Assembly (NCBI RefSeq): GCF_000702065.1
Contig: NZ_KL370857.1
Location: 1 to 56,802, forward strand
Reading direction: 5' to 3'
DNA: 56,802 nt
From: Kandleria vitulina DSM 20405
GTDB lineage: Bacteria > Bacillota_I > Bacilli_A > Erysipelotrichales > Coprobacillaceae
Part shown: positions 9,128-56,588 of the stretch, piece after piece
Position numbering within the stretch: the first letter of the stretch is position 1
Layout of the letters: the number at the start of each line of letters is the position of its first letter
Program-made: the position numbers and the translations under genes
Notes under the pieces: generated by a model
What the model was told of the DNA's origin: nothing
Database searches by the model: none
What the model saw: only the letters and a program-made list of their open reading frames with translations

Positions 9128-9724
9128 AAATTGATGAAATTTTTGTGGCTTATCAATAACTTCATGACAATGTCTGCATCGTGGTTCATAAGTTTCCTTG
9201 GCTCCAACAAGAACAACAGGATCATCAAATGAAGCTGGTTTGCCATTGACAATACGCTGTGTGCGAGTTGCTGGTGCACCGCACTTAGCACATACGGCAG
9301 TAAGCTTAGTGACAAATTCTGCTCTTGTTAAAATATCAGGAATGACACCGAAAGGTTCTCCACGGAAGTCCTTGTCCAATCCTGCTACCATGACTCTAAG
9401 TCCGCTATCTGCAAGGTAGTCGCAGACATTGACAACTTCTTCATCAAAGAACTGTACTTCATCGATTGCGACCACATCTGTATCTTCTTCGATATATTCG
9501 AGGATATCAGCGGCCTTGTCAACGACAATACAAGGCACATGTGCTCCGGCATGAGAAACGATTTCTGTTTCTGAATAGCGGTTATCAACTTTTGGCTTGA
9601 AGACAATGATTTTCTTTTTAGCAAAAGTTAATACGTTAATACGACGAATGAGCTCTTCTGTTTTTCCTGCAAACATGCAGCCACAGATGACTTCTAGCCA
9701 TCCTTCTCTATACTGATTATACAT
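9107..9724 (-). CDS. tdk: Thymidine kinase
   Basis: 205 residues, the type II (TK1-like) enzyme that phosphorylates thymidine to dTMP for salvage. P-loop [14 protein letters not shown] near residues 14-27, DEVQFFDEE Walker B/lasso region, and zinc-binding cysteines in [13 protein letters not shown] and CRHCHE. The frame is open to an ATG at 9751, but that codon directly abuts a TATAAT -10 box (minus strand, 9757-9752) and would lie upstream of or at the transcript start. The ATG at 9724 (MYNQYREGW) has AAGAAGGAG before it, so I place the start there. Confidence 0.93.
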
Positions 9725-43104: not shown

Positions 43105-43128
43105 CAAAACAAATGGGAGGTGTCTATC

Positions 43129-45393
43129 GTGCCAAGAAAAAAAGCATCAAAGAAAAAGACAAACGTTGAAAAGAAAACTGTAGCTGAAACTAAGACAGTT
43201 TCTGCTAAAGCGAATGAAACAAAAGTTGAACTTAAAGAAGTTAAAGATAAATTAGATACAAAAAAAGAAGAAAAAGTAGTTAAGAAAGCTGCTGCTAAGA
43301 AAACTGTGAAAGAAACAAAAGCAGAAGAAAAGCCAGCTAAAAAAGCTGCTGTTAAAACTGTGAAAGAAACAAAAGCAGAAGAAAAGCCAGCTAAAAAAGC
43401 TGCTGTTAAGACTGTGAAAGAAACAAAAGCAGAAGAAAAGCCAGCTAAAAAAGCTGCTGCTAAGACTGTGAAAGAAACAAAAGCAGAAGAAAAGCCAGCC
43501 AAGAAAGCTGCTGCTAAGAAGACTGTAAAGGAAACAAAGGCAGAAGAAAAGCCAGCCAAGAAAGCTGCTGCTAAGAAGACTGTAAAAGAAACAAAGGCAG
43601 AAGAAAAGCCAGCTAAGAAAGCTGCTGCTAAGGAAACTGTAAAGGAAACAAAAGCAGAAGAAAAGCCAGCCAAGAAAGCTGCTGCTAAGAAGGCTGTAAA
43701 GGAAACAAAGGCAGAAGAAAAGCCAGCTAAGAAAGCTGCTGCTAAGAAGACTGTAAAGGAAACAAAAGCAGAAGAAAAGTCAGCCAAGAAAGCTGCTGCT
43801 AAGAAGACTGTAAAGGAAACAAAGGCAGAAGAAAAGCCAGCTAAAAAGGCTGTAAAAGAAACTAAAAAAGAAGAAAAACCAGTAGTTGAAGAAGTTAAGG
43901 TGGAACCAGTTATGGAAGAATATCATGAAGAACTTCCTCAGCCAAGAAGAAGTGTGGCATTTATTGGATCTGAATGTTATCCATTTGTGAAGACTGGTGG
44001 TTTAGGAGATGTTATGTATGCATTACCTAAAGCACTTGCTAAACAGAACTGTGATGTAAAGGTTATTCTACCTAGATATGCATGTATTCCAGAAGAATAT
44101 CAGAATAAGATGATCTATAGAGGATCATTTGATATGGATTTATGTGCTGATGGTAAATCATACTATGTTGGTATTATGGAATATGTATGGGATGGAGTTG
44201 TCTATGATTTCATTGATAACCAGGAATTCTTTACTGAAGGTAATCCATATACTAACTTAGTAGATGATATTCCTAAGTTCTGTTACTTTGGAAAAGCTGC
44301 TTTAGCTGCATTAAACTATATGAATTGGACTCCTGATGTTATTCATTGTCATGATTGGCAGGCAGGTCTTGTACCAATTTATTTAAGAGAAATGTTTAAT
44401 GATACACCATTATCACGTTCTAAGGTTGTAATGACTATTCATAACTTAAGATTCCAGGGTGTCTATAACATTGAAACATTCAAATATTGGACTAATTTAC
44501 CAGATTATGTCTTCAATAAGGATACATTAACTGTTAAGTGGTTGGATGCTAATATGTTAAAAGGTGGTTTAACATATGCTAATGCAATTACTACAGTATC
44601 AAATACTTACGCAGGAGAAATTCAGACTGAATTCTATGGTGAAGGATTAGATGCACATCTTAGATATCATTCAGGTAAATTAAGAGGTATTGTTAATGGT
44701 ATTGATTATGATATCTGGAACAGTGCTACTGATGATAAACTTGCAAGTAAGTATGATATTACGAATGTATTGGATAAGAAGAAAGAAAACAAGCGTGCTT
44801 TACAGGAAGAGCTTGGTCTTGAACAAGATGATCACAAGTTTGTGATTGGCTTGATTTCTAGATTAACTGATCAAAAAGGATTGGATCTAGTTAATGAAAT
44901 CATTCCTCAGGTAATGGATGAACATACACAGGTTGTTATCTTAGGAACTGGAGATCCTGCATATGAAGATTCATTCAGATATTATGAAAATGCTTATAAA
45001 GGAAACTTATGTTCAAATATCATGTATGATGAATCAAGAGCACACCGCATCTATGCCGGTGCTGATGCATTATTAGTGCCATCACAGTTTGAACCATGTG
45101 GATTAACTCAGTTAATCGCTATGCACTATGGTACAGTGCCTATCGTAAGAGAAACTGGTGGATTAAAAGATACAGTTGAACCTTATGATGTAAACTATAA
45201 CTCAGGTAATGGATTCACATTTGATCGTTATGAATCAGGATTATTGCTTGATGCTATTAATAGAGCTAAAACATTCTATTTCACAAATAGATGGTGCTTT
45301 GATGAAATGGTTCAGAGAAATATGGCAAAAGATGTTTCTTGGGAAAATTCTGCAAAGCAGTATAGAGAGTTATATGTTGAATTAACTAAATAA
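43129..45393 (+). CDS. glgA: Glycogen synthase with a long Lys/Ala/Glu repeat N-terminal extension
   Basis: 754 residues. Residues about 275-754 are a full GlgA (GT5): RRSVAFIGSECYPFVKTGGLGDVMYALPK with the KTGGL ADP-glucose motif, HCHDWQAGLVPIYL, VNGIDYDIWNS, and LLVPSQFEPCGLTQLIAMHYG. It extends alpha-1,4-glucan from ADP-glucose. Residues 1-270 are an added low-complexity domain: ten near-identical units of TVKETKAEEKPAKKAAAKK plus one degenerate unit. Start: GTG 43129, eight bases after GGGAGG; a GTG at 43120 overlaps that site. No other glg gene is adjacent. Confidence 0.93.
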   Translation: MPRKKASKKKTNVEKKTVAETKTVSAKANETKVELKEVKDKLDTKKEEKVVKKAAAKKTVKETKAEEKPAKKAAVKTVKETKAEEKPAKKAAVKTVKETKAEEKPAKKAAAKTVKETKAEEKPAKKAAAKKTVKETKAEEKPAKKAAAKKTVKETKAEEKPAKKAAAKETVKETKAEEKPAKKAAAKKAVKETKAEEKPAKKAAAKKTVKETKAEEKSAKKAAAKKTVKETKAEEKPAKKAVKETKKEEKPVVEEVKVEPVMEEYHEELPQPRRSVAFIGSECYPFVKTGGLGDVMYALPKALAKQNCDVKVILPRYACIPEEYQNKMIYRGSFDMDLCADGKSYYVGIMEYVWDGVVYDFIDNQEFFTEGNPYTNLVDDIPKFCYFGKAALAALNYMNWTPDVIHCHDWQAGLVPIYLREMFNDTPLSRSKVVMTIHNLRFQGVYNIETFKYWTNLPDYVFNKDTLTVKWLDANMLKGGLTYANAITTVSNTYAGEIQTEFYGEGLDAHLRYHSGKLRGIVNGIDYDIWNSATDDKLASKYDITNVLDKKKENKRALQEELGLEQDDHKFVIGLISRLTDQKGLDLVNEIIPQVMDEHTQVVILGTGDPAYEDSFRYYENAYKGNLCSNIMYDESRAHRIYAGADALLVPSQFEPCGLTQLIAMHYGTVPIVRETGGLKDTVEPYDVNYNSGNGFTFDRYESGLLLDAINRAKTFYFTNRWCFDEMVQRNMAKDVSWENSAKQYRELYVELTK
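43282..43860 (+). repeat. Coding tandem repeat, about ten units of 54-57 bp
   Basis: Encodes KKAAAKKTVKETKAEEKPA units. Units differ mainly by 3-bp indels (AAVK versus AAAKK) and silent changes such as AAA/AAG, so the array is young and kept in frame. The opposite strand shows a 227-codon open frame that is only a shadow of the repeat. Confidence 0.9.
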
Positions 45394-47470: not shown

Positions 47471-48076
47471 GTGAAGTTATTAAAATCGTTTATTGTTGCT
47501 TTAGCATTACTTACTGCAGTTACTGTAGTATTGCCTAATCAGGTTGTTAATGTAGAAGCAAAGACTTCAATGAAAAGAACAATTTATGTGGGACAGACAT
47601 TGAAGCTTTATGTTATTGGTGTTAAAAAGAAGAAAGTAAAATGGAGATCTACTAACAAGAAAGTAGCTAAAGTCTCTAAAAAAGGGAAAGTAAAAGGTTT
47701 AAGACCTGGTAAAGCTACTATTATTGCTAAGGTTGGTAAGAGATCATTAAAATGTAAGCTTACTGTTAAGAAGAGAAAACCAACAGTTACAGCTGGACAG
47801 AGAAATGCGTTAGCAAGAGCTAAATACGTTCTTCAGAATTATCCAGTATCAAGAGAATTATTAAGGGATCAGCTTGTTGCAGATAAATATAATTCACAAG
47901 AAATTCAGTATGCATTAGATCATTGTGGTGCTAACTGGAATGAACAGGCATACAAGTGCGCTCAGTTCTACGTGAATAGATACACATTATCTAAAGAACA
48001 GTTGATCGAATGTCTTGTAAGAGTTAAATTTACTCGTGAACAAGCTATTTATGGCGCAAATAGAGCTTATAAATAA
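47471..48076 (+). CDS. Secreted Big2-Ltp protein, paralogue 1 of 4
   Basis: 201 residues. Signal peptide MKLLKSFIVALALLTAVTVV..VEA-KT (cleavage near residue 31, no lipobox). Residues about 37-103: a lysine-rich Big2-like domain (TIYVGQTLKLYV, KKVKWRSTNKKVAKVSKKGK, GKATIIAKVG). Residues about 112-201: two Ltp-type repeats (QRNALARAKYVLQN.., REQLVADKYNSQEIQYALDHC-like, then YKCAQFYVNRYTLSKEQLI and FTREQAIYGANRAY). Ltp repeats occur in the superinfection-exclusion lipoprotein of Streptococcus phage TP-J34. GTG start, GAGGAGGG site. Predicted to be surface-attached or secreted; function inferred. Confidence 0.8.
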   Translation: MKLLKSFIVALALLTAVTVVLPNQVVNVEAKTSMKRTIYVGQTLKLYVIGVKKKKVKWRSTNKKVAKVSKKGKVKGLRPGKATIIAKVGKRSLKCKLTVKKRKPTVTAGQRNALARAKYVLQNYPVSRELLRDQLVADKYNSQEIQYALDHCGANWNEQAYKCAQFYVNRYTLSKEQLIECLVRVKFTREQAIYGANRAYK

Positions 48077-48106
48077 GATATGGAACATTGTTTCATATCT
48101 TTTTTT
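48076..48106 (+). terminator. Terminator after Big2-Ltp gene 1
   Basis: Stem AGATATG with CATATCT (48094-48100), seven T after it. Confidence 0.7.
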
Positions 48107-48109
48107 ATA

Positions 48110-48152
48110 CACATATATTGTGAATCAAAAATGATAATTCACAATATATGTG
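48110..48152. promoter_or_regulatory. 16-bp perfect inverted repeat before Big2-Ltp gene 2
   Basis: CACATATATTGTGAAT (48110-48125) with ATTCACAATATATGTG (48137-48152), 11-base loop. Contains TGTGAAT and ATTCACA, the half-sites that recur between the other genes of this cluster. Lies in the promoter region of gene 2. Confidence 0.7.
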
Positions 48153-48202
48153 ATAAACTGTTTATATTGTTTATTGGGAAATTTATTTTAAGGAGAAAGC
48201 TT

Positions 48203-48808
48203 ATGGGAAGAACAATGAAGTCAGTTTTTATTTCATTGATATTATTAATGATGTTTACTTGTAATGTAGAAGCAGCTTCAATTAGGTTAAGTAGAAAGAA
48301 ACTTTCAATAAAAGTAGGACAGACTGTTACATTAAAAGTAAGAGGTGCTAAAAAGAAGAAAGTGAAGTGGAAGTTAACAAATAAGAATATTGTTAAACTT
48401 AATAATAAAGGTAAAATAACAGGAATAAAGGTAGGGAAGACAACTGTTATTGCAAGAATTGGGAAGAAATCATTAAGATGTCAGGTGAGTGTAAGAAAGA
48501 TAGCTTCAAAAATGACAGCAGCTCAAAGATATGCAATAGAAAGTGCTAAAAGTTATTTAAGTTTTATGGCTTTTTCAAAAGAAGGATTAAAGAGTCAGCT
48601 TCGTTATGAGAAGTATAGTGAAAAGGATGCTCAGTATGCAGTAGATCATTGTGGAGCTGATTGGTATGAACAGGCTTATAAATGTGCTAAGGGCTACATG
48701 GAAGATAATAGTCTATCTAGAAGTGAATTGATTGATCAGCTTATATATGAAGGATACAGTCCTGAACAGGCCATCTATGGTGTGAATAGAGTTCTATGGT
48801 GTGAATAG
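48203..48808 (+). CDS. Secreted Big2-Ltp protein, paralogue 2 of 4
   Basis: 201 residues from ATG 48203 after AAGGAGAAAGC; the open frame to 48080 crosses the inverted repeat. Signal peptide MKSVFISLILLMMFTCNVEA with cleavage before ASIRLS. Big2-like domain (KLSIKVGQTVTLKVRG, KKVKWKLTNKN, GKTTVIARIG) and two Ltp repeats (QRYAIESAKSYLSFMAFSKE.., AQYAVDHCGADWYEQAYKCA, SRSELIDQLIYEGYSPEQAI). The most divergent Big2 part of the four. The 3' end has an exact 19-bp tandem duplication that changes the last residues to VLWCE. Confidence 0.8.
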   Translation: MGRTMKSVFISLILLMMFTCNVEAASIRLSRKKLSIKVGQTVTLKVRGAKKKKVKWKLTNKNIVKLNNKGKITGIKVGKTTVIARIGKKSLRCQVSVRKIASKMTAAQRYAIESAKSYLSFMAFSKEGLKSQLRYEKYSEKDAQYAVDHCGADWYEQAYKCAKGYMEDNSLSRSELIDQLIYEGYSPEQAIYGVNRVLWCE

Positions 48809-48811
48809 AGT
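48774..48811 (+). repeat. 19-bp tandem duplication at the end of Big2-Ltp gene 2
   Basis: TCTATGGTGTGAATAGAGT occurs twice back to back (48774-48792, 48793-48811). As 19 is not a multiple of three, the second copy is read in another frame and brings a new stop. Confidence 0.85.
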
Positions 48812-48816
48812 TTTTA

Positions 48817-48844
48817 GGTAAAATGGAAACATTTTACCTTTTTA
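48817..48844 (+). terminator. Terminator after Big2-Ltp gene 2
   Basis: Perfect 9-bp stem GGTAAAATG (48817-48825) with CATTTTACC (48830-48838), GAAA tetraloop, T run. Confidence 0.85.
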
Positions 48845-48881
48845 TATAGAAAAATGAATAGAGAATTTGAAAGATATATAT

Positions 48882-48910
48882 TTGACTATACTTACTAAAA
48901 AAGATACTAT
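48882..48910 (+). promoter_or_regulatory. Promoter for Big2-Ltp gene 3
   Basis: TTGACT (48882-48887), 17-base spacer, TACTAT (48905-48910), upstream of ATG 48948. Confidence 0.65.
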
Positions 48911-48947
48911 ATTATCAATAGTATATATAGGAAAATTGGAGGGTATT

Positions 48948-49553
48948 ATGAAGAGATTTATTAAATCATTTATGATCGCATTGGCATTAATAACTGCAGT
49001 TACTGTAGTGTTGCCTAATCAGGTTGTTAATGTAGAAGCAAAGACTTCAATGAAAAGAACAATTTATGTGGGACAGACATTGAAGCTTTATGTTATTGGT
49101 GCAAAGAAGAAAAAAGTAAAATGGAGATCTAGTAACAAGAAAGTAGCTAAGGTTTCTAAAAAAGGGAAAGTAAAAGGTTTAAGACCTGGTAAAGCTACTA
49201 TTATTGCTAAGGTTGGTAAGAGATCATTAAAATGTAAGCTTACAGTTAAGAAAAGACCTGCTGGAAGTAATCTATCAGCAGGACAGAGAAATGCTTTAGC
49301 AAGAGCCAAAAGCTATTTAGATTTAATGGCTTTCTCAAAGCAGGGATTAAAAGATCAACTTGTATTTGATGGATTTAGTAATAGCGATGCTCAGTTTGCA
49401 GTAGACCACTGCGGTGCAAACTGGTATGAACAGGCAGCAAGATCGGCAAGAGAATATGCTAAATATGCGTATTCTAGAAATGATCTGATTGAACAATTGG
49501 TTTATATTAAATTTACTAATGATCAGGCTGTCTATGGTGTAAATAGACTTTAA
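48948..49553 (+). CDS. Secreted Big2-Ltp protein, paralogue 3 of 4
   Basis: 201 residues from ATG 48948 after TTGGAGGG. Signal peptide MKRFIKSFMIALALITAVTV ending VEA-KT. The signal peptide end and Big2 domain are nearly identical to paralogue 1 even at the DNA level (about 48990-49250 against 47510-47770). The Ltp part differs and is closer to paralogues 2 and 4 (KSYLDLMAFSKQGLKDQLVF, AQFAVDHCGANWYEQAARSA, FTNDQAVYGVNRL). Chimeric look suggests recombination between paralogues. Confidence 0.8.
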   Translation: MKRFIKSFMIALALITAVTVVLPNQVVNVEAKTSMKRTIYVGQTLKLYVIGAKKKKVKWRSSNKKVAKVSKKGKVKGLRPGKATIIAKVGKRSLKCKLTVKKRPAGSNLSAGQRNALARAKSYLDLMAFSKQGLKDQLVFDGFSNSDAQFAVDHCGANWYEQAARSAREYAKYAYSRNDLIEQLVYIKFTNDQAVYGVNRL

Positions 49554-49557
49554 TATG

Positions 49558-49594
49558 AAAAGACTGAAACACAGTATGTGATTCAGTCTTTTTT
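49558..49594 (+). terminator. Terminator after Big2-Ltp gene 3
   Basis: 11-bp stem AAAAGACTGAA with TTCAGTCTTTT, then TTT; just after the stop codon. Confidence 0.75.
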
Positions 49595-49617
49595 ATATTC
49601 ACATTAATTGTGAATAT
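49595..49617. promoter_or_regulatory. Palindrome ATATTCACA-N5-TGTGAATAT
   Basis: 9-bp arms, 5-base centre, between Big2-Ltp genes 3 and 4. Same TTCACA-N5-TGTGAA core as at 50348 and 50388. A second hairpin GTATGCT-GAG-AGCATAC (49648-49664) and a half-site TTGTGAAT (49669-49676) lie between it and the -10 TATAAT (49686-49691). Confidence 0.65.
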
Positions 49618-49716
49618 AAAAACAGTAATCACCTCATATGTGCATGAGTATGCTGAGAGCATACCAAATTGTGAATAAGAATAACTATAATAATTAGTAT
49701 CTAAGGAGGACGTATT

Positions 49717-50316
49717 ATGAAGGAAACAATAAGCAGATTTTTGGTTATTTTAGCTACTGTAATGGCATTAACTGTTCCAGTAAATGCTGCCACAATGAAG
49801 CTTAATAAGAAGAAAGCTACAATTTATGTAGGACAAGCACTTACATTAAAAGTAAAAGGGAAAAAGAAGAAAGTTAAGTGGAAATCTACTAATAAGAAAG
49901 TAGCTAAAGTTAATAAAAAAGGTAAAGTTACTGGTTTAAAGGCTGGTAAAGCTACTATTATTGCGAAGGTTGGTAAGAAATCTTTAAAATGTAAGGTTAC
50001 TGTTAAGAAAGTAGCAAAAAAAAGATTAACTTCGGGTCAAAGAAATGCGTTAGGGAAAGCTAAAAGTTATTTATCTTTGATGGCTTTTTCAAAGGAAGGT
50101 CTAAAAAAACAGTTACTCTTTGAAAAATTTAGAGAAGCAGATGCACAATATGCAGTAGATCATTGTGGTGCTAATTGGTATGAACAAGCTTATAAAAGTG
50201 CAAAGAGTTATTTGTCATTTATGTCATTTTCTGAAGATGAATTAATTAACCAATTGGAGTTTGATGGATTTACATATGATCAAGCTGTCTATGGTGCTGA
50301 TAGAGCCTATGCTTAA
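49717..50316 (+). CDS. Secreted Big2-Ltp protein, paralogue 4 of 4
   Basis: 199 residues. Signal peptide MKETISRFLVILATVMALTV ending VNA-AT. Big2-like domain, very basic (ATIYVGQALTLKVKGKKKKV, KKVAKVNKKGKVTGLKAGKA), and two Ltp repeats (QRNALGKAKSYLSLMAFSKE, AQYAVDHCGANWYEQAYKSA, KSYLSFMSFSEDELINQL, FTYDQAVYGADRAY). CTAAGGAGGA precedes the ATG. It is the copy next to tracrRNA/cas9. Net charge strongly positive in the Big2 part, which could bind teichoic acids (inference). Confidence 0.8.
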   Translation: MKETISRFLVILATVMALTVPVNAATMKLNKKKATIYVGQALTLKVKGKKKKVKWKSTNKKVAKVNKKGKVTGLKAGKATIIAKVGKKSLKCKVTVKKVAKKRLTSGQRNALGKAKSYLSLMAFSKEGLKKQLLFEKFREADAQYAVDHCGANWYEQAYKSAKSYLSFMSFSEDELINQLEFDGFTYDQAVYGADRAYA

Positions 50317-50320
50317 TTTA

Positions 50321-50346
50321 ATCACTCTTAAGGGAGTGATTTTTTT
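50321..50346 (+). terminator. Terminator after Big2-Ltp gene 4
   Basis: Stem ATCACTC (50321-50327) with GAGTGAT (50334-50340) and six T. Confidence 0.75.
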
Positions 50347-50347
50347 A

Positions 50348-50404
50348 TTCACATTTATTGTGAAAATAAAAAAATATAGAAACGTTATTCACAGAAAGTG
50401 TGAA
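50348..50404. promoter_or_regulatory. Two TTCACA-N5-TGTGAA palindromes upstream of the CRISPR locus
   Basis: Cores at 50348-50364 and 50388-50404, each TTCACA-N5-TGTGAA. A further TGTGTGAATG half-site lies at about 50430. The stretch 50405-50517 is otherwise AT-rich with no gene. These repeat the motif seen between the Big2-Ltp genes. Confidence 0.6.
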
Positions 50405-50517: not shown

Positions 50518-50641
50518 AGAAAAAGCATCACCGAAGTGATGCACGTCATCTAAATGACAACTGGATAACCAGCATTTAAGCATAAGCTTTATTTTAACTC
50601 GTTGTGTTATTTTGAACAGACCAAAACTTTAGTTTTAGGTC
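50518..50641 (-). ncRNA. tracrRNA (minus strand)
   Basis: Read on the minus strand: an anti-repeat complementary to the CRISPR repeat (plus 50592-50627; 20 bases, 50601-50620, match the repeat exactly), then GAGTTAAAATAAAGC, a close relative of the tracrRNA nexus entry of Streptococcus systems. Further stem-loops follow, and a final GCATCAC-TTCG-GTGATGC terminator with a T run (50525-50543, run to about 50518). Promoter: TTGACA (minus, plus coordinates 50676-50671), 17 bases, TATTCT (50653-50648). The -35 therefore lies between the cas9 ribosome site and its ATG. Length about 125 bases. Confidence 0.9.
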
Positions 50642-50679: not shown

Positions 50680-53600
50680 ATGAGTCAAAATAATAATAAA
50701 ATTTATAATATTGGATTAGATATTGGAGATGCATCTGTAGGATGGGCTGTAGTAGATGAGCATTATAATCTATTAAAAAGACATGGGAAACATATGTGGG
50801 GCTCACGTTTATTTACACAGGCGAATACAGCTGTAGAAAGAAGATCAAGTCGTTCTACAAGAAGACGTTACAATAAGAGAAGAGAACGTATTAGATTGTT
50901 AAGAGAAATTATGGAGGATATGGTATTGGATGTGGATCCAACATTCTTCATTAGACTTGCAAATGTATCATTTCTTGATCAGGAAGATAAGAAAGATTAT
51001 CTAAAAGAAAATTATCATTCAAATTACAATTTGTTTATAGATAAAGATTTTAATGATAAGACTTACTATGATAAATATCCTACTATTTATCATTTAAGAA
51101 AACACTTATGTGAATCAAAAGAGAAAGAAGATCCAAGATTAATTTATCTTGCTTTACATCATATTGTGAAATATAGAGGAAATTTCTTATATGAAGGCCA
51201 GAAGTTCTCTATGGATGTTTCTAATATTGAAGATAAGATGATTGATGTTTTGAGACAATTTAATGAAATTAATCTGTTTGAATATGTAGAAGATAGAAAG
51301 AAAATTGATGAAGTACTTAATGTATTGAAGGAACCACTATCAAAGAAACATAAAGCTGAGAAAGCATTTGCGTTGTTTGATACTACTAAAGATAATAAAG
51401 CTGCTTATAAAGAACTTTGTGCTGCTTTGGCAGGAAATAAATTTAATGTTACAAAAATGTTAAAGGAAGCAGAGTTACATGATGAGGATGAAAAGGATAT
51501 TTCATTTAAATTCAGTGATGCCACTTTTGATGATGCCTTTGTAGAAAAACAACCATTATTAGGTGATTGTGTAGAATTCATTGATTTATTACATGATATC
51601 TATAGTTGGGTAGAGTTACAAAATATACTAGGTTCAGCACACACATCTGAACCATCTATTTCTGCAGCTATGATACAGAGATATGAGGATCACAAGAATG
51701 ATTTAAAGTTATTAAAAGATGTTATCCGTAAGTATTTACCTAAGAAATATTTTGAAGTCTTTAGAGATGAAAAGAGTAAGAAGAATAACTATTGTAACTA
51801 CATTAATCATCCATCAAAGACACCGGTAGATGAATTCTACAAGTATATTAAGAAACTGATTGAGAAGATTGATGATCCTGATGTAAAGACAATTCTTAAT
51901 AAGATTGAATTAGAATCTTTCATGTTAAAACAAAATTCACGTACAAATGGTGCTGTTCCTTATCAGATGCAGCTGGATGAATTAAATAAAATCTTAGAGA
52001 ATCAATCAGTTTATTACTCTGATTTAAAAGATAATGAAGATAAGATTAGATCTATTCTTACTTTTAGAATTCCTTATTATTTTGGTCCACTTAATATAAC
52101 TAAAGACAGACAATTTGATTGGATTATTAAAAAAGAAGGAAAAGAAAATGAAAGAATTCTCCCTTGGAATGCGAATGAAATAGTAGATGTAGATAAGACT
52201 GCTGATGAATTTATTAAAAGAATGAGAAACTTCTGTACATACTTCCCTGATGAACCAGTTATGGCAAAGAATTCTTTAACAGTTAGTAAGTATGAAGTTC
52301 TTAATGAAATTAATAAACTAAGAATTAATGATCATCTTATTAAACGTGATATGAAAGATAAGATGCTACATACATTATTTATGGATCATAAATCTATTTC
52401 AGCTAATGCAATGAAGAAATGGTTAGTTAAGAATCAGTATTTTAGTAATACGGATGATATTAAAATTGAAGGTTTCCAAAAAGAAAATGCTTGTTCTACA
52501 TCATTAACTCCATGGATCGATTTCACTAAGATTTTTGGAAAAATAAATGAATCTAACTATGATTTCATTGAAAAGATTATTTATGATGTAACTGTATTTG
52601 AAGATAAGAAAATCTTGAGAAGAAGATTAAAAAAAGAATATGACTTAGATGAAGAAAAGATTAAGAAGATTCTTAAATTAAAATATAGTGGATGGTCAAG
52701 ATTATCTAAGAAATTGTTATCAGGAATCAAGACAAAATATAAAGATAGTACAAGAACACCAGAAACAGTTTTAGAAGTAATGGAACGCACAAATATGAAT
52801 TTGATGCAGGTTATCAATGATGAGAAACTTGGCTTCAAGAAGACTATTGATGATGCAAACAGTACAAGTGTATCTGGTAAATTCAGCTATGCTGAAGTTC
52901 AGGAGTTAGCAGGTTCACCTGCCATTAAGAGAGGTATTTGGCAAGCCTTATTGATTGTAGATGAAATTAAGAAGATTATGAAACATGAGCCTGCTCATGT
53001 GTATATTGAATTTGCAAGAAATGAAGATGAAAAAGAAAGAAAAGATTCATTTGTTAATCAGATGTTGAAGCTTTATAAAGATTATGATTTTGAAGATGAA
53101 ACAGAGAAAGAAGCAAATAAACATCTTAAAGGTGAAGATGCAAAATCTAAGATAAGATCGGAAAGATTAAAGCTTTATTATACTCAGATGGGGAAATGTA
53201 TGTATACAGGTAAATCATTGGATATTGATAGATTAGATACATATCAAGTGGATCATATTGTACCTCAGTCTTTATTAAAGGATGATAGTATTGATAATAA
53301 GGTTTTAGTATTATCAAGTGAAAATCAAAGAAAATTAGATGATTTGGTTATTCCTTCAAGTATAAGAAATAAGATGTATGGATTCTGGGAAAAATTATTT
53401 AATAATAAGATTATAAGTCCTAAGAAGTTCTATTCATTAATTAAGACAGAATTTAATGAAAAGGATCAAGAACGTTTTATTAATAGACAGATTGTAGAGA
53501 CAAGACAGATTACTAAACATGTTGCTCAGATTATTGATAATCATTATGAGAATACAAAAGTTGTTACAGTAAGAGCTGATTTATCTCATCAATTTAGAGA

Positions 53601-54714
53601 ACGTTATCATATCTATAAGAATAGAGATATTAATGATTTCCATCATGCACATGATGCATATATTGCGACAATTCTAGGAACTTATATTGGTCATAGATTT
53701 GAATCATTGGATGCTAAATATATTTATGGTGAGTATAAGAGAATATTTAGAAATCAGAAGAATAAGGGTAAAGAAATGAAGAAAAACAATGATGGATTTA
53801 TCCTTAATAGTATGAGAAATATCTATGCAGATAAGGATACAGGAGAAATCGTTTGGGATCCTAATTATATTGATAGAATTAAGAAGTGTTTCTATTATAA
53901 AGATTGTTTTGTGACAAAGAAGTTAGAAGAAAATAATGGTACATTCTTTAATGTTACGGTTTTACCTAATGATACTAATTCAGATAAAGACAATACATTG
54001 GCTACTGTACCTGTTAATAAGTATCGTAGTAATGTGAATAAATATGGTGGTTTTAGTGGTGTAAATTCATTTATTGTTGCAATTAAGGGTAAAAAGAAGA
54101 AGGGTAAGAAGGTAATAGAGGTTAATAAGCTTACTGGTATACCTCTAATGTATAAGAATGCAGATGAAGAAATAAAGATTAACTATCTTAAGCAAGCAGA
54201 AGACTTAGAAGAAGTACAAATTGGTAAAGAAATTCTAAAGAATCAGCTTATTGAGAAAGATGGTGGATTATATTATATTGTTGCGCCTACTGAAATTATT
54301 AATGCAAAACAATTAATATTAAATGAATCACAGACTAAATTAGTTTGTGAGATATATAAAGCAATGAAATATAAGAATTACGATAATCTTGATAGTGAGA
54401 AGATAATTGATTTGTATAGATTGCTAATTAACAAGATGGAACTATATTATCCGGAATATAGAAAACAATTAGTAAAGAAATTCGAAGATAGATATGAACA
54501 ATTAAAAGTGATTTCTATTGAAGAAAAGTGTAATATAATTAAACAAATTTTAGCTACTTTGCATTGTAATTCTTCTATTGGAAAAATAATGTATTCTGAC
54601 TTTAAAATTAGTACGACGATAGGACGTTTAAATGGTAGAACAATTTCATTAGATGATATTTCCTTCATCGCAGAGTCTCCGACAGGAATGTATTCAAAGA
54701 AATATAAGTTATGA
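50680..54714 (+). CDS. cas9: Cas9 endonuclease, type II-A
   Basis: 1344 residues from ATG 50680 with GGGGAGG about 10 bases before. RuvC-I IGLDIGDASVGWAVVD (D14), arginine-rich bridge helix RRSSRSTRRRYNKRRERIR, long helical REC lobe, RuvC-II VYIEFARNEDEK (E777), HNH YQVDHIVPQSLLKDDSIDNK (H859), RuvC-III HHAHDAYIA (H991, D992), and a C-terminal PAM-interacting domain. All catalytic residues present, so predicted active. Large size and csn2 nearby fit subtype II-A. PAM unknown. Overlaps cas1 by 4 bases. Confidence 0.98.
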   Translation: MSQNNNKIYNIGLDIGDASVGWAVVDEHYNLLKRHGKHMWGSRLFTQANTAVERRSSRSTRRRYNKRRERIRLLREIMEDMVLDVDPTFFIRLANVSFLDQEDKKDYLKENYHSNYNLFIDKDFNDKTYYDKYPTIYHLRKHLCESKEKEDPRLIYLALHHIVKYRGNFLYEGQKFSMDVSNIEDKMIDVLRQFNEINLFEYVEDRKKIDEVLNVLKEPLSKKHKAEKAFALFDTTKDNKAAYKELCAALAGNKFNVTKMLKEAELHDEDEKDISFKFSDATFDDAFVEKQPLLGDCVEFIDLLHDIYSWVELQNILGSAHTSEPSISAAMIQRYEDHKNDLKLLKDVIRKYLPKKYFEVFRDEKSKKNNYCNYINHPSKTPVDEFYKYIKKLIEKIDDPDVKTILNKIELESFMLKQNSRTNGAVPYQMQLDELNKILENQSVYYSDLKDNEDKIRSILTFRIPYYFGPLNITKDRQFDWIIKKEGKENERILPWNANEIVDVDKTADEFIKRMRNFCTYFPDEPVMAKNSLTVSKYEVLNEINKLRINDHLIKRDMKDKMLHTLFMDHKSISANAMKKWLVKNQYFSNTDDIKIEGFQKENACSTSLTPWIDFTKIFGKINESNYDFIEKIIYDVTVFEDKKILRRRLKKEYDLDEEKIKKILKLKYSGWSRLSKKLLSGIKTKYKDSTRTPETVLEVMERTNMNLMQVINDEKLGFKKTIDDANSTSVSGKFSYAEVQELAGSPAIKRGIWQALLIVDEIKKIMKHEPAHVYIEFARNEDEKERKDSFVNQMLKLYKDYDFEDETEKEANKHLKGEDAKSKIRSERLKLYYTQMGKCMYTGKSLDIDRLDTYQVDHIVPQSLLKDDSIDNKVLVLSSENQRKLDDLVIPSSIRNKMYGFWEKLFNNKIISPKKFYSLIKTEFNEKDQERFINRQIVETRQITKHVAQIIDNHYENTKVVTVRADLSHQFRERYHIYKNRDINDFHHAHDAYIATILGTYIGHRFESLDAKYIYGEYKRIFRNQKNKGKEMKKNNDGFILNSMRNIYADKDTGEIVWDPNYIDRIKKCFYYKDCFVTKKLEENNGTFFNVTVLPNDTNSDKDNTLATVPVNKYRSNVNKYGGFSGVNSFIVAIKGKKKKGKKVIEVNKLTGIPLMYKNADEEIKINYLKQAEDLEEVQIGKEILKNQLIEKDGGLYYIVAPTEIINAKQLILNESQTKLVCEIYKAMKYKNYDNLDSEKIIDLYRLLINKMELYYPEYRKQLVKKFEDRYEQLKVISIEEKCNIIKQILATLHCNSSIGKIMYSDFKISTTIGRLNGRTISLDDISFIAESPTGMYSKKYKL

Positions 54715-55583
54715 GCTGGAGAATAGTAGTTATTGATAGTAAAGCAAAATTAACATATAAGAATGATTATTTGGTTGTACGAAATGACAATATCCGTAGA
54801 ATTCATTTATCTGAGATAAATACGGTTATTGTCAACAGTACAGCCGTTGTGATTACTTCTTATTTGATTAATGAGCTAATCAAAAGAAAAATAAAAATTA
54901 TATTTTGTGATGAAACAAGAAGTCCTGCAGGAGAAATTATGCCATATTATGGATGTCATAATTCAAGTAAGAGAATAAATGAACAGCTGTATTGGGATAA
55001 GGAATTTGCGGTTGATGTATGGACAAGAATTATTAAAGAGAAGATTCATAATCAATCAATTATTCTAAAGCATTATGGTGAAAAGAATGCAGATAAGTTA
55101 GATGTTTATATAGAAGAACTTCAACGCAATGATGAAACAAATAGAGAAGGTCATGCAGCTAAAGTATATTTTGATACATTATTTGGAATGTCATTTAAAA
55201 GAGATGATGGCAGTGATTTAAATGCAGCACTCAATTATGGATATACAGTTCTTCTGTCACAATTTAATAGAGATATTGTTGCTTATGGTTATCTTACTCA
55301 ACTAGGAATAAAACATCGAAATGAGTTTAACCCATATAATTTATCATCTGATTTAATGGAACCATTTAGACCATTAATAGATAAAATTGTTAGAGATAAT
55401 ATTGATGAAGGATTTGATGGAGCTATGAAAATAAAACTTATAGATGTATTAAATCAACAGGTTGTAATTAATAGAAGTAAACAGTATGTATCTAATGCCA
55501 TAGCTATATATGTAAAGAGTGTATTTCAGGCAATCAAGAAGCATAATCTCAATGAGTTAAAATTCATTGAGTATGAGCTATAG
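54711..55583 (+). CDS. cas1: Cas1 integrase, type II
   Basis: 290 residues. MSWRIVVIDSKAKLTYKNDY start, INTVIVNSTAVVITSYLINEL, then the metal-binding Glu in NREGHAAKVYFDTLFG, LNYGYTVLLSQFNRDIVAYG, and the H/D pair around IKHRNEFNPYNLSSDLMEPFRP. Cas1 with Cas2 inserts new spacers. ATGA overlap with cas9 and 11-base overlap with cas2 show one operon. Confidence 0.97.
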   Translation: MSWRIVVIDSKAKLTYKNDYLVVRNDNIRRIHLSEINTVIVNSTAVVITSYLINELIKRKIKIIFCDETRSPAGEIMPYYGCHNSSKRINEQLYWDKEFAVDVWTRIIKEKIHNQSIILKHYGEKNADKLDVYIEELQRNDETNREGHAAKVYFDTLFGMSFKRDDGSDLNAALNYGYTVLLSQFNRDIVAYGYLTQLGIKHRNEFNPYNLSSDLMEPFRPLIDKIVRDNIDEGFDGAMKIKLIDVLNQQVVINRSKQYVSNAIAIYVKSVFQAIKKHNLNELKFIEYEL

Positions 55584-55893
55584 ATATATGAGAATAATTG
55601 TATTGTTTGATTTACCTTCAACGACATATATAGATCAAAAGGCATATAGGACATTTCACAAGTTTTTAGTAAATGATGGCTTTGTAATGATGCAAGAGAG
55701 TGTTTATTGTAAACTTGCTTTGAATATGTCAGTAGTTAATGGTGTAAAAGCAAGACTAAAGGCACATGCACCCAAGAAAGGTGATGTGGAGATACTAGTT
55801 ATAACGGAAAAACAATTTTCTAAGATTGAATATCTTGTAGGTGAAAAGCAAAGCATCATTGAAGATTCAGAAGAAAGAATGATTATATTATGA
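55573..55893 (+). CDS. cas2: Cas2, type II
   Basis: 106 residues from ATG 55573 (MSYRYMRIIVLFDLP); TTG 55567 two codons upstream is also possible. Ferredoxin-like fold with MRIIVLFDLPSTTYIDQKAYRTF and FVMMQESVYCKLA. Structural partner of Cas1 in spacer integration. Overlaps both neighbours. Confidence 0.96.
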   Translation: MSYRYMRIIVLFDLPSTTYIDQKAYRTFHKFLVNDGFVMMQESVYCKLALNMSVVNGVKARLKAHAPKKGDVEILVITEKQFSKIEYLVGEKQSIIEDSEERMIIL

Positions 55894-56588
55894 TATTACG
55901 TATAGCTGGATTTGAGAATGATATCATCTTTGATGATTGTACGAATACAAGATTGATTATTGAAGATCATAAATTATTTTCTAAGATTTTATTTCTACTA
56001 AATGGTATTGTAAATAATAAATTAAAGACTAATGAAATACTTCTTCTTAATGATAAAGAAGACTACGTTCTTCCTTCAGAGATGGATGTAATCATTAATC
56101 CTACTAATATTAATCTTAATTCTAAAACAATGCTTACATCTCTTTATAAATATATTGAGAAGTTAATTCTACATGATGAAGATAAAGATTTTAGTTATAA
56201 GAGATATATAGAAAAGATTAATGGATTATTAGTAGATGAACTATATAATTTGAATCTTGATTTTGAATACAATGATGATTTATTAGTTAATCAGTATTTA
56301 AAATCCATTAATGTGAAGTTTACTCAGGAGTCTATTTCTTCTACATTTGATTTATTGATGAATTACTTAGAACTTGTTTCTGAATTGAATCAAGGTATAA
56401 TTATTGTGTTGTGTAATTGCTTTAATTACTTTGATGATCATCAACTTGAAGAGTTATGTAAATACAAGAATTATAAGCATATTAATATATTATTTATCGA
56501 GAATTCTTATAGAAATCTCGTAAACACATACTTTAAGACTTTTATCATTGATAATGATTTCAATGAAGATTTTGTTCAAGATGACTAG
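55890..56588 (+). CDS. csn2: Csn2, type II-A adaptation protein
   Basis: 232 residues, ATGA overlap with cas2. Position and length mark it as Csn2; the sequence shows IPFL-like start FENDIIFDDCTNTRLIIED, a helical middle (SLYKYIEKLILHDEDKD) and GIIIVLCNCFNYFDDHQLEEL near the C terminus, the degenerate Walker-B-like strand of the family. Csn2 rings bind DNA ends during spacer capture. Its presence defines subtype II-A. Confidence 0.9.
   Translation: MILRIAGFENDIIFDDCTNTRLIIEDHKLFSKILFLLNGIVNNKLKTNEILLLNDKEDYVLPSEMDVIINPTNINLNSKTMLTSLYKYIEKLILHDEDKDFSYKRYIEKINGLLVDELYNLNLDFEYNDDLLVNQYLKSINVKFTQESISSTFDLLMNYLELVSELNQGIIIVLCNCFNYFDDHQLEELCKYKNYKHINILFIENSYRNLVNTYFKTFIIDNDFNEDFVQDD

What the first reader, a model, noticed from the sequence alone, without database searches (positions are those of the whole stretch)
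47471..50316. Four tandem secreted Big2-Ltp proteins next to a CRISPR-Cas9 locus
Seen: four adjacent genes of 199-201 codons, each with signal peptide, a very basic Big2-like domain and two repeats of the Ltp type (QRNAL..AKSYL..MAFSKEGL.., AQYAVDHCGANWYEQA). Known: the Ltp repeat protein of Streptococcus phage TP-J34 blocks DNA entry of other phages at the membrane. Inference: this is a chromosomal, wall-attached version, a family of surface exclusion factors stacked beside adaptive immunity. Unlike Ltp they have no lipobox; the lysine-rich Big2 part may anchor to teichoic acids. Tandem copies with divergent Ltp parts would suit diverse phages.
Basis: partly seen in the sequence, partly recalled or inferred. 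Interest (0 to 1): 0.85.

Follow-up and report, generated by a model that had tools for sequence, protein, structure and literature searches.

The report
Tandem wall-borne Ltp phage-exclusion-like proteins
A bacterium carries, beside its CRISPR-Cas9 genes, four neighbouring genes for small surface proteins that look like a phage's own 'keep rivals out' protein, taken over by the host, copied and diversified, which may block phage DNA at the cell wall.

Summary
Four adjacent genes (47471-48076, 48203-48808, 48948-49553, 49717-50316) each encode an export signal without a visible lipobox, a very basic Big_2 domain and two Lipoprotein_Ltp repeats, far over Pfam cut-offs. The model of gene 4 superposes its Ltp half on TP-J34 Ltp (4EQQ: TM 0.87-0.90, 37% identity). 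No other Ltp gene was found in the genome. Best reading: a phage superinfection-exclusion gene that became a host surface gene and multiplied. A viral contig encodes the same kind of Big_2-Ltp protein between a repressor-like HTH gene and an integrase. The four Ltp parts form one clade. Genes 1 and 3 share a nearly identical front but strongly diverged Ltp halves, with the break near the domain border. The link to Cas9 is not general: Ltp lies within 20 kb of cas1/cas9 in 2 of 38 Ltp-positive genomes of the order (contig breaks limit this), and co-occurrence is not enriched. Wall retention is plausible: a relative fuses a similar front to a peptidoglycan amidase. Phage exclusion is inferred; two Ltp parts are not acidic. 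New variant of a known kind.

The parts
47471..48076 (+). Gene 1: signal peptide, basic Big_2, two Ltp repeats (201 aa, GTG start); most diverged Ltp part, net +5
   Evidence: AF2 model keeps six helices in the same order (not fold-searched)
48203..48808 (+). Gene 2: signal peptide, basic Big_2, two Ltp repeats (201 aa); Ltp part net -4
48948..49553 (+). Gene 3: signal peptide, basic Big_2, two Ltp repeats (201 aa); front part 94/106 identical to gene 1, Ltp part net +1
49717..50316 (+). Gene 4: signal peptide, basic Big_2, two Ltp repeats (199 aa); Ltp part net -2; modelled
48075..48101 (+). Terminator-like hairpin after gene 1
48816..48839 (+). Terminator-like hairpin after gene 2
49558..49592 (+). 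Inverted repeat with T run after gene 3 (terminator-like by inspection)
50320..50341 (+). Terminator-like hairpin after gene 4
50525..50627 (-). Probable tracrRNA of the type II-A system (anti-repeat 50593-50627, terminator 50542-50525); lies between gene 4 and cas9 on the other strand
   Evidence: sub-threshold Rfam hit; role inferred
50680..54714 (+). cas9 (neighbour, not part of the Ltp unit)
   Evidence: start codon by inspection
54711..56588 (+). cas1, cas2, csn2 (neighbours)

Best explanation
The four genes encode host-owned, secreted, cell-surface superinfection-exclusion-type proteins. Shown by computation: each has an N-terminal export-type segment, a strongly basic Big_2 domain and a C-terminal pair of Ltp repeats; for gene 4 the modelled Ltp half has the TP-J34 fold; the four Ltp parts group as one clade, as local duplication predicts; and the same architecture exists beside a phage integrase. 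Inferred: the basic Big_2 domain keeps the protein in the wall, probably by binding anionic polymers. The Ltp pair, held outside the membrane, catches an incoming phage's ejected tail component (the tape measure protein in the TP-J34 model) and stalls DNA entry after adsorption. Also inferred: the ancestor was a temperate-phage exclusion gene that the host kept and multiplied; the anchor half was then homogenised between genes 1 and 3 while the Ltp halves stayed different, which could widen the range of phages covered.
For: Pfam Ltp and Big_2 hits. PHROG 'superinfection exclusion' families at E 4e-35 (gene 4) and 8e-26 (gene 1). Foldseek to 4EQQ: TM 0.87-0.90 over the Ltp half, rmsd 0.9-1.1. 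Gene 1's model keeps the helices. Phage precedents: viral contig L143 has a Cro/CI-type HTH gene, then signal peptide-Big_2-Ltpx3 with no visible lipobox, then an integrase 84 bp on; two faecal phage fragments (records marked UNVERIFIED, MT838898 and MT837517) have signal peptide, Cu_amine_oxidN1, two Ltp, then an integrase; L192 and its near copy L205 carry choline-binding repeats plus Ltp beside an integrase (Pfam on L192). Ltp clade of the four genes: 95/94 (bootstrap not settled). Gene 1/3 mosaic: 94/106 against 49/92 identical residues; nucleotide differences 0.076 before and 0.397 after the break, 0 of 500 shuffles as strong, also 0 of 500 on synonymous codons. Anchor: similar front fused to Amidase_3 in G028; basic Big_2 also with a transglutaminase-like and a cyclophilin-like domain in this genome. 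Published: the TP-J34 Ltp repeat domain carries exclusion and works on more phages without its lipid anchor (PMC3952083, Introduction read); CwpV, a host-encoded wall protein with variable C-terminal repeats, blocks DNA injection but not adsorption (PMC4737114, passages).
Against: No activity was tested. TP-J34 Ltp belongs to a different, well-supported Ltp clade (100/100), so the tested member is not the nearest. Its acidic character is said to matter, yet the Ltp parts of genes 1 and 3 are net +5 and +1, and only 5-8 of 16 acidic positions of the 4EQQ stretch stay acidic. Ltp also occurs in very large leucine-rich-repeat-like open frames and in pneumococcal CbpL, where virulence effects are reported (PMC5137146, passages), so the domain may bind other partners. 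The immediate neighbours scanned are not phage genes, so the phage origin rests on relatives. At 40 of 43 fetched non-viral Ltp loci (41 of the order) the narrow profile used found no integrase in the stretch held. Binding of Big_2 to the wall is inferred from fusions and charge only. No signal-peptide predictor was run.
Confidence: 0.55

Rival explanations
1. Surface adhesion or host-interaction proteins. The Ltp repeats are a general protein-binding module, and the tandem copies serve attachment or immune variation, not phage defence.
For: CbpL of pneumococcus is a wall-bound, non-lipoprotein Ltp protein with effects on virulence and phagocytosis (PMC5137146, passages). Ltp repeats occur in very large leucine-rich-repeat-like open frames (1553 and 1966 aa) in the order. 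Two of four Ltp parts are not net acidic.
Against: Among the rows compared, the nearest Ltp relatives outside this genome are phage-encoded (68.5% identity), and the same architecture sits beside an integrase. In CbpL the role of the single modules is unresolved.
Confidence: 0.25
2. Decaying remnants or by-products of an old prophage that have no present function.
For: Ltp remnants exist in relatives: a single-repeat stub after a CRISPR array in G031 and a truncated copy beside a TnpB-like element in G010.
Against: All four frames are intact with their own terminator-like sites; dN is below dS in the Ltp part of all six gene pairs (for example gene 3/4: 0.313 and 1.417); the two modelled folds are confident.
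Confidence: 0.07
3. Wall-remodelling accessory proteins: the basic Big_2 binds the wall, and Ltp docks a host enzyme such as an amidase.
For: In G028 the neighbouring gene pairs a similar front module with Amidase_3.
Against: The neighbours scanned here include no amidase. The two G028 genes are as well explained by a shared anchor. Phage copies beside integrases do not suggest wall housekeeping.
Confidence: 0.08

Closest known systems
Ltp of Streptococcus thermophilus phage TP-J34 (PDB 4EQQ; PF07553)
   Same: Two Ltp repeats with the same helical fold (gene 4 model: TM 0.87-0.90); presented outside the membrane (inferred here)
   Different: TP-J34 Ltp is a lipoprotein with a serine-rich spacer in a prophage lysogeny module (PMC3952083); here a basic Big_2 takes the place of lipid and spacer, the genes are on a bacterial contig and fourfold, the Ltp parts belong to another clade, and two are not acidic
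Big_2-Ltp protein of viral contig IMGVR_UViG_3300031994_000109 (L143)
   Same: N-terminal export-type segment without visible lipobox, Lys-rich Big_2, C-terminal Ltp
   Different: Two Big_2 stretches, P/T-rich linker, three Ltp repeats; single copy between an HTH gene and an integrase
CbpL of Streptococcus pneumoniae
   Same: Wall-bound non-lipoprotein with a C-terminal Ltp domain, conserved among isolates (PMC5137146, passages)
   Different: Anchored by choline-binding repeats, with an Excalibur domain and one Ltp stretch of 48-50 aa; studied as a virulence factor
CwpV of Clostridioides difficile
   Same: Host-encoded wall protein with an N-terminal wall anchor and variable C-terminal repeats; blocks DNA injection (PMC4737114, passages)
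   Different: No report seen that its repeats are Ltp; sequences were not compared here; phase-variable
Big_2x3-Ltpx3 protein of relative G028 (same family)
   Same: Signal peptide-Big_2-Ltp architecture on a bacterial contig
   Different: One Ltp gene; its neighbour has a similar front fused to Amidase_3

Membership tests
Pfam Lipoprotein_Ltp domain family (PF07553) | Profile score over the curated cut-off | tested here: met
   62-106.3 bits against 23.2, four of four proteins
Pfam Lipoprotein_Ltp domain family (PF07553) | Helical repeat fold of 4EQQ | tested here: met
   Gene 4 model: TM 0.87-0.90, rmsd 0.9-1.1; gene 1 model shows the same helix order (not fold-searched); genes 2 and 3 not modelled
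TP-J34-type Sie lipoprotein | Lipobox cysteine / lipid anchor | tested here: not met
   No lipobox in the four N-termini, by inspection only
TP-J34-type Sie lipoprotein | Acidic Ltp domain | tested here: inconclusive
   Net -4 and -2 in genes 2 and 4, +5 and +1 in genes 1 and 3; the 4EQQ stretch is -5
TP-J34-type Sie lipoprotein | Gene in a prophage lysogeny module | tested here: not met
   Scanned neighbours are rpiB, an Exo_endo_phos protein and cas genes
TP-J34-type Sie lipoprotein | Blocks phage DNA entry | not testable with these tools
   Needs plating, adsorption and DNA-entry assays
Big_2 surface domain family (PF02368) | Profile score over the curated cut-off and Ig-like fold | tested here: met
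   36.9-45.5 bits against 22.8, four of four; top PDB matches of the gene 4 model include Big_2 domains such as 7QUZ
Defence gene family of PADLOC-DB 2.0.0 | Match to a PADLOC model at E 0.01 or better | tested here: not met
   0 families for each of the four proteins
CRISPR-associated (accessory) gene family | Recurrent co-location with cas genes | tested here: not met
   Within 20 kb of cas1/cas9 in 2 of 38 Ltp-positive genomes, one of them the present case (contig breaks limit this); Fisher p 0.33 and 0.68 for co-occurrence
CwpV-type host-encoded Sie protein | Sequence relation to CwpV | not tested
   No CwpV sequence was fetched or compared

The most novel reading that the evidence does not exclude
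A domesticated, diversified surface-exclusion array: the host keeps one wall anchor nearly uniform by gene conversion while the phage-catching Ltp heads diverge, giving several exclusion specificities outside the cell in front of a CRISPR-Cas9 system. Capture of such genes beside CRISPR loci may have recurred in this family, since an Ltp remnant abuts a different CRISPR array in G031.
Probability: 0.2. Interest if true: 0.75.

Novelty: new variant of a known kind. Interest (0 to 1): 0.52.

Why it matters
Superinfection exclusion is mostly described as a prophage trait; CwpV is the only host-encoded wall protein with this effect that I met in the passages read. This locus would be a second route: a prophage exclusion gene turned into a small host gene family with a reusable anchor and divergent heads. 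It is easy to test because the proteins are about 200 aa, and TP-J34 Ltp is reported active against lactococcal phages (PMC3952083). PADLOC-DB did not recognise any of the four, so such genes may be missed in defence surveys. The diverse anchors seen on Ltp heads (lipobox, transmembrane, PASTA, Cu_amine_oxidN1, choline-binding, Big_2, partly by inspection) suggest that getting the head outside the membrane matters more than how it is held.

Tried and rejected
Separate acquisition of the four Ltp parts from different phages: suggested because gene 4's Ltp is closer by identity to a gut phage (68.5%) than to its paralogues (57/92, 58/95 and 47/95); rejected because the tree joins the four (95/94 in the 57-row tree, whose bootstrap had not settled; SH-aLRT 87 in a 123-row quick tree, from which I left out four long-branch rows and, by length and duplicate filters, 10 of 80 viral rows).

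CRISPR association as a rule: rejected. Of the 38 Ltp-positive genomes, 36 have a match over the Pfam cut-off. The second close case, G031, is a one-repeat stub listed as a stop-to-stop frame of 42 codons. G028 has Ltp on contig C108 and cas9 on C109, but the contig ends share no exact overlap and adjacency is not shown.

An operator for the Ltp genes (palindrome TTCACA-N5-TGTGAA): with up to 2 mismatches the window has 6 sites, no more than shuffles (mean 5.8), though 5 of the 6 lie at 48108-50404; exact sites number 10 in the genome against 1 for the reversed control, 5 of them on this contig between 49598 and 60447. Others lie by rRNA-like sequence (by inspection) and in terminator-like hairpins, so I take it for a general intergenic repeat. 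TTATNCACA (a DnaA-box-like word, recalled): 8 in the window, mean 4.0 in shuffles, 4 of them at 48105-50393; not followed up. Promoter scan: 15 sites, mean 17.7 in shuffles.

Prophage context of non-viral Ltp genes: a profile from five integrases found one within 3 kb at 3 of 43 loci with an Ltp ORF (one weak, E 3e-6), against 26 of 80 viral loci (17 of 43 with full 3-kb flanks). Several loci end early, the profile is narrow, and the 80 include near copies. One of the 43 (L089) is probably a false Ltp hit. Of 47 loci given to that script, 4 gave no Ltp ORF (L047, L088, L090, L092).

The named genome scan gave 4 loci, 2 of them matching the Big_2 part only. Class sample: 13 of 395 genomes with Ltp, 11 over the cut-off, not followed up for context. 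Plasmids: 29 records match, none over 80% of the query; the 10 listed match the Ltp part.
Full report
WHAT IS THERE. The window holds four tandem genes on the + strand at 47471-48076, 48203-48808, 48948-49553 and 49717-50316. Each protein has a hydrophobic N-terminus read as a signal peptide (by inspection), a Big_2 domain and two Lipoprotein_Ltp repeats; E-values are 4e-9 to 7e-12 for Big_2 and 6e-17 to 8e-31 for Ltp, all over Pfam's cut-offs. NCBIfam gives no match over a cut-off for them. The part before Ltp has 28-32 Lys+Arg and 1 acidic residue in each protein. A search of the whole genome (2.13 Mb, 75 contigs) finds 8 Ltp repeats, all in these four genes.

SURROUNDINGS. Upstream are rpiB and, on the other strand, an Exo_endo_phos protein. 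Downstream lie cas9, cas1, cas2 and csn2. Between gene 4 and cas9 the reverse strand carries an anti-repeat (sub-threshold) and a terminator-like site, read as the tracrRNA. Terminator-like hairpins follow genes 1, 2 and 4, and an inverted repeat with a T run follows gene 3. The Ltp genes are therefore neighbours of the CRISPR system and probably not part of its operon.

FOLD. AlphaFold2 on gene 4 with a nine-row alignment gives mean pLDDT 88; the one long stretch under 50 is residues 1-23. Foldseek finds 4EQQ, the crystal structure of TP-J34 Ltp (TM by target 0.87-0.90, rmsd 0.9-1.1, 37% identity), and Big_2 domains such as 7QUZ. Sequence search also finds 4EQQ, over residues 107-193 (E 2e-12). 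The model of the most diverged copy, gene 1, has six helices in the same order (not fold-searched). Genes 2 and 3 were not modelled.

HISTORY OF THE FOUR COPIES. In a tree of 57 two-repeat units the four genes form one clade (95/94), with genes 1 and 3 as sisters, while TP-J34 Ltp falls in another clade with 100/100 support (only 96 columns, many forks unresolved, bootstrap not settled). Genes 1 and 3 share 94 of 106 residues in the front part but 49 of 92 in the Ltp part. The best breakpoint is at gap-free aligned nucleotide 302, near the domain border: 7.6% differences before, 39.7% after, 0 of 500 shuffles as strong; for codons of the same amino acid 0.09 against 0.39, again 0 of 500. dS is 0.29 in front and 1.15 behind. 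I read this as recent homogenisation of the anchor with the heads left different; replacement of a head would look similar. Other pairs break at nucleotides 89-93 (0-5 of 500 shuffles), probably because signal peptides vary; on synonymous codons only pair 1/4 stands out among them (12 of 500).

PHAGE COUNTERPARTS. Among 50,697 phage records gene 4 matches 150; none covers 80% of the query, and the 40 listed rows match residues 103-199, the Ltp part. The closest are two unannotated faecal fragments (records marked UNVERIFIED Bacteriophage sp.), in which a secreted protein with Cu_amine_oxidN1 and two Ltp repeats precedes an integrase. A scan of IMG/VR with an Ltp-only alignment kept the best 80 of 104 loci; 26 of 80 have an integrase within 3 kb (17 of 43 with full flanks; near copies included). 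One, L143, encodes an export-type N-terminus without visible lipobox, Lys-rich Big_2 (two stretches) and three Ltp repeats, directly after a Cro/CI-type HTH gene and 84 bp before an integrase (PHROG superinfection exclusion and integrase). Others carry choline-binding repeats (L192 by Pfam, its near copy L205 by sequence) or Cu_amine_oxidN1 (L165), and L186 a sub-cut-off PASTA match. The scan was seeded with phage Ltp units and gene 4, so it is biased to this clade.

ANCHOR. In this genome Big_2 has 14 matches in 13 open frames, two of them under the cut-off. Besides the four, four more have a similarly basic Big_2 (net +20 to +24 over 75 residues); three of these have it after an N-terminal hydrophobic stretch and carry a transglutaminase-like, a cyclophilin-like or an unassigned rest. 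Five are not strongly basic (net -4 to +4). In G028, same family, one gene is signal peptide-Big_2x3-Ltpx3 and the next is signal peptide-Big_2-Amidase_3 with a similar front. This supports a general wall-retention module; binding itself is inferred.

SURVEY. At E 0.001, Ltp occurs in 1 of 1 genome of the genus (this one), 6 of 43 of the family, 38 of 315 of the order (36 over the cut-off) and 13 of 395 drawn from the class (11 over the cut-off); the samples overlap. In the order, cas1 is present in 13 of 38 Ltp-positive and 71 of 277 other genomes (p 0.33), and cas9 over the cut-off in 9 of 38 and 58 of 277 (p 0.68) (typed). On one contig within 20 kb only this genome and G031 have both; elsewhere cas genes are on another contig or over 160 kb away, so contig breaks leave some drafts open. 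In G031 a 42-codon Ltp stub starts about 50 bp after the last of 24 CRISPR repeats, downstream of cas1. As the present genome prompted the question, one independent case is weak evidence. Architectures in the order include lipoproteins, transmembrane proteins with or without zinc ribbon, a PASTA-Ltp protein and very large leucine-rich-repeat-like frames (apart from the Pfam checks these labels are by inspection); Big_2-Ltp was seen in G028 alone.

FUNCTION. For TP-J34, the Ltp repeat domain carries exclusion, DNA injection is blocked, and without its lipid anchor the protein acts on more phages (PMC3952083: Introduction read, passages). That paper names the tape measure protein as the partner and acidic residues as important; [quoted passage not shown] CwpV shows that a host wall protein with a wall anchor and variable repeats can block injection without blocking adsorption (passages). 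CbpL shows that a wall-bound, non-lipoprotein Ltp protein exists in a bacterium and that the role of its modules is open (passages). A cryptic prophage was reported to protect S. thermophilus through ltp and a noncoding region (PMC6356513, passages). Bebeacua 2013 and Sun 2006 were not seen, only cited in these papers. By this analogy the four proteins most likely stall phage DNA entry from the wall. The main doubts are the distance to TP-J34, the missing net acidity in genes 1 and 3, and the small share of 4EQQ acidic positions kept (5-8 of 16; 7 of 16 in the gut-phage relative).

NOVELTY. Domain, fold and even the Big_2-Ltp architecture are known or present in phages. Four bacterial copies with a shared anchor and diverged heads I did not find described: searches for Ltp with superinfection exclusion, for 'Lipoprotein_Ltp' or 'PF07553', for 'Ltp family lipoprotein' and its variants, and for superinfection exclusion with Big2 and Ltp gave nothing of this kind among the papers listed (open-licence papers only, listings capped, passages of six papers read). 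I file it as a new variant of a known kind.

Noticed in passing
window 48108-50404 and G000:C2:59899, 60431: Palindrome TTCACA-N5-TGTGAA: 10 exact sites in the genome against 1 for the reversed control, 5 of them within 11 kb around the Ltp and CRISPR genes; others sit by rRNA-like sequence and in terminator-like hairpins. Looks like a short intergenic repeat family; some copies contain TTATTCACA, a DnaA-box-like word.
   Followed up: partly
L044:9326-9451 (G031): A one-repeat Ltp stub about 50 bp after the last repeat of a 24-repeat CRISPR array downstream of cas1.
   Followed up: partly
L047 about 9228-9330 (G010): A truncated Ltp frame ends where sequence resembling an IS200/IS605-type TnpB element begins (identity of the element by inspection).
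   Followed up: no
L045:9543-11835 (G028): Two adjacent genes share a similar signal peptide-Big_2 front, one with three Ltp repeats, the other with Amidase_3.
   Followed up: yes
window 43120-45393: A glycogen-synthase-like protein (by inspection) carries a long N-terminal Lys/Ala/Glu repeat region (PAKKAAAKKTVKETKAEEK-type), rather histone-H1-like.
   Followed up: no
Gordonia phage records (among H3-H40): Of 150 phage records with an Ltp match to gene 4, 99 are Gordonia phages; the listed ones are annotated mostly as lipoprotein or superinfection exclusion. In RoadKill the gene lies two genes before the portal gene, and no integrase is annotated in the 4.3 kb seen.
   Followed up: no
PADLOC-DB 2.0.0 scan of the four proteins: No PADLOC model matches any of the four Ltp proteins at E 0.01, so such genes may be missed by that annotator.
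   Followed up: no
L122:2890-3453 (Streptococcus phage Javan258): A phage Ltp protein with three repeats and an N-terminal signal-like segment without visible lipobox lies directly before the integrase, so lipid anchoring is not universal even in phage Ltp.
   Followed up: no
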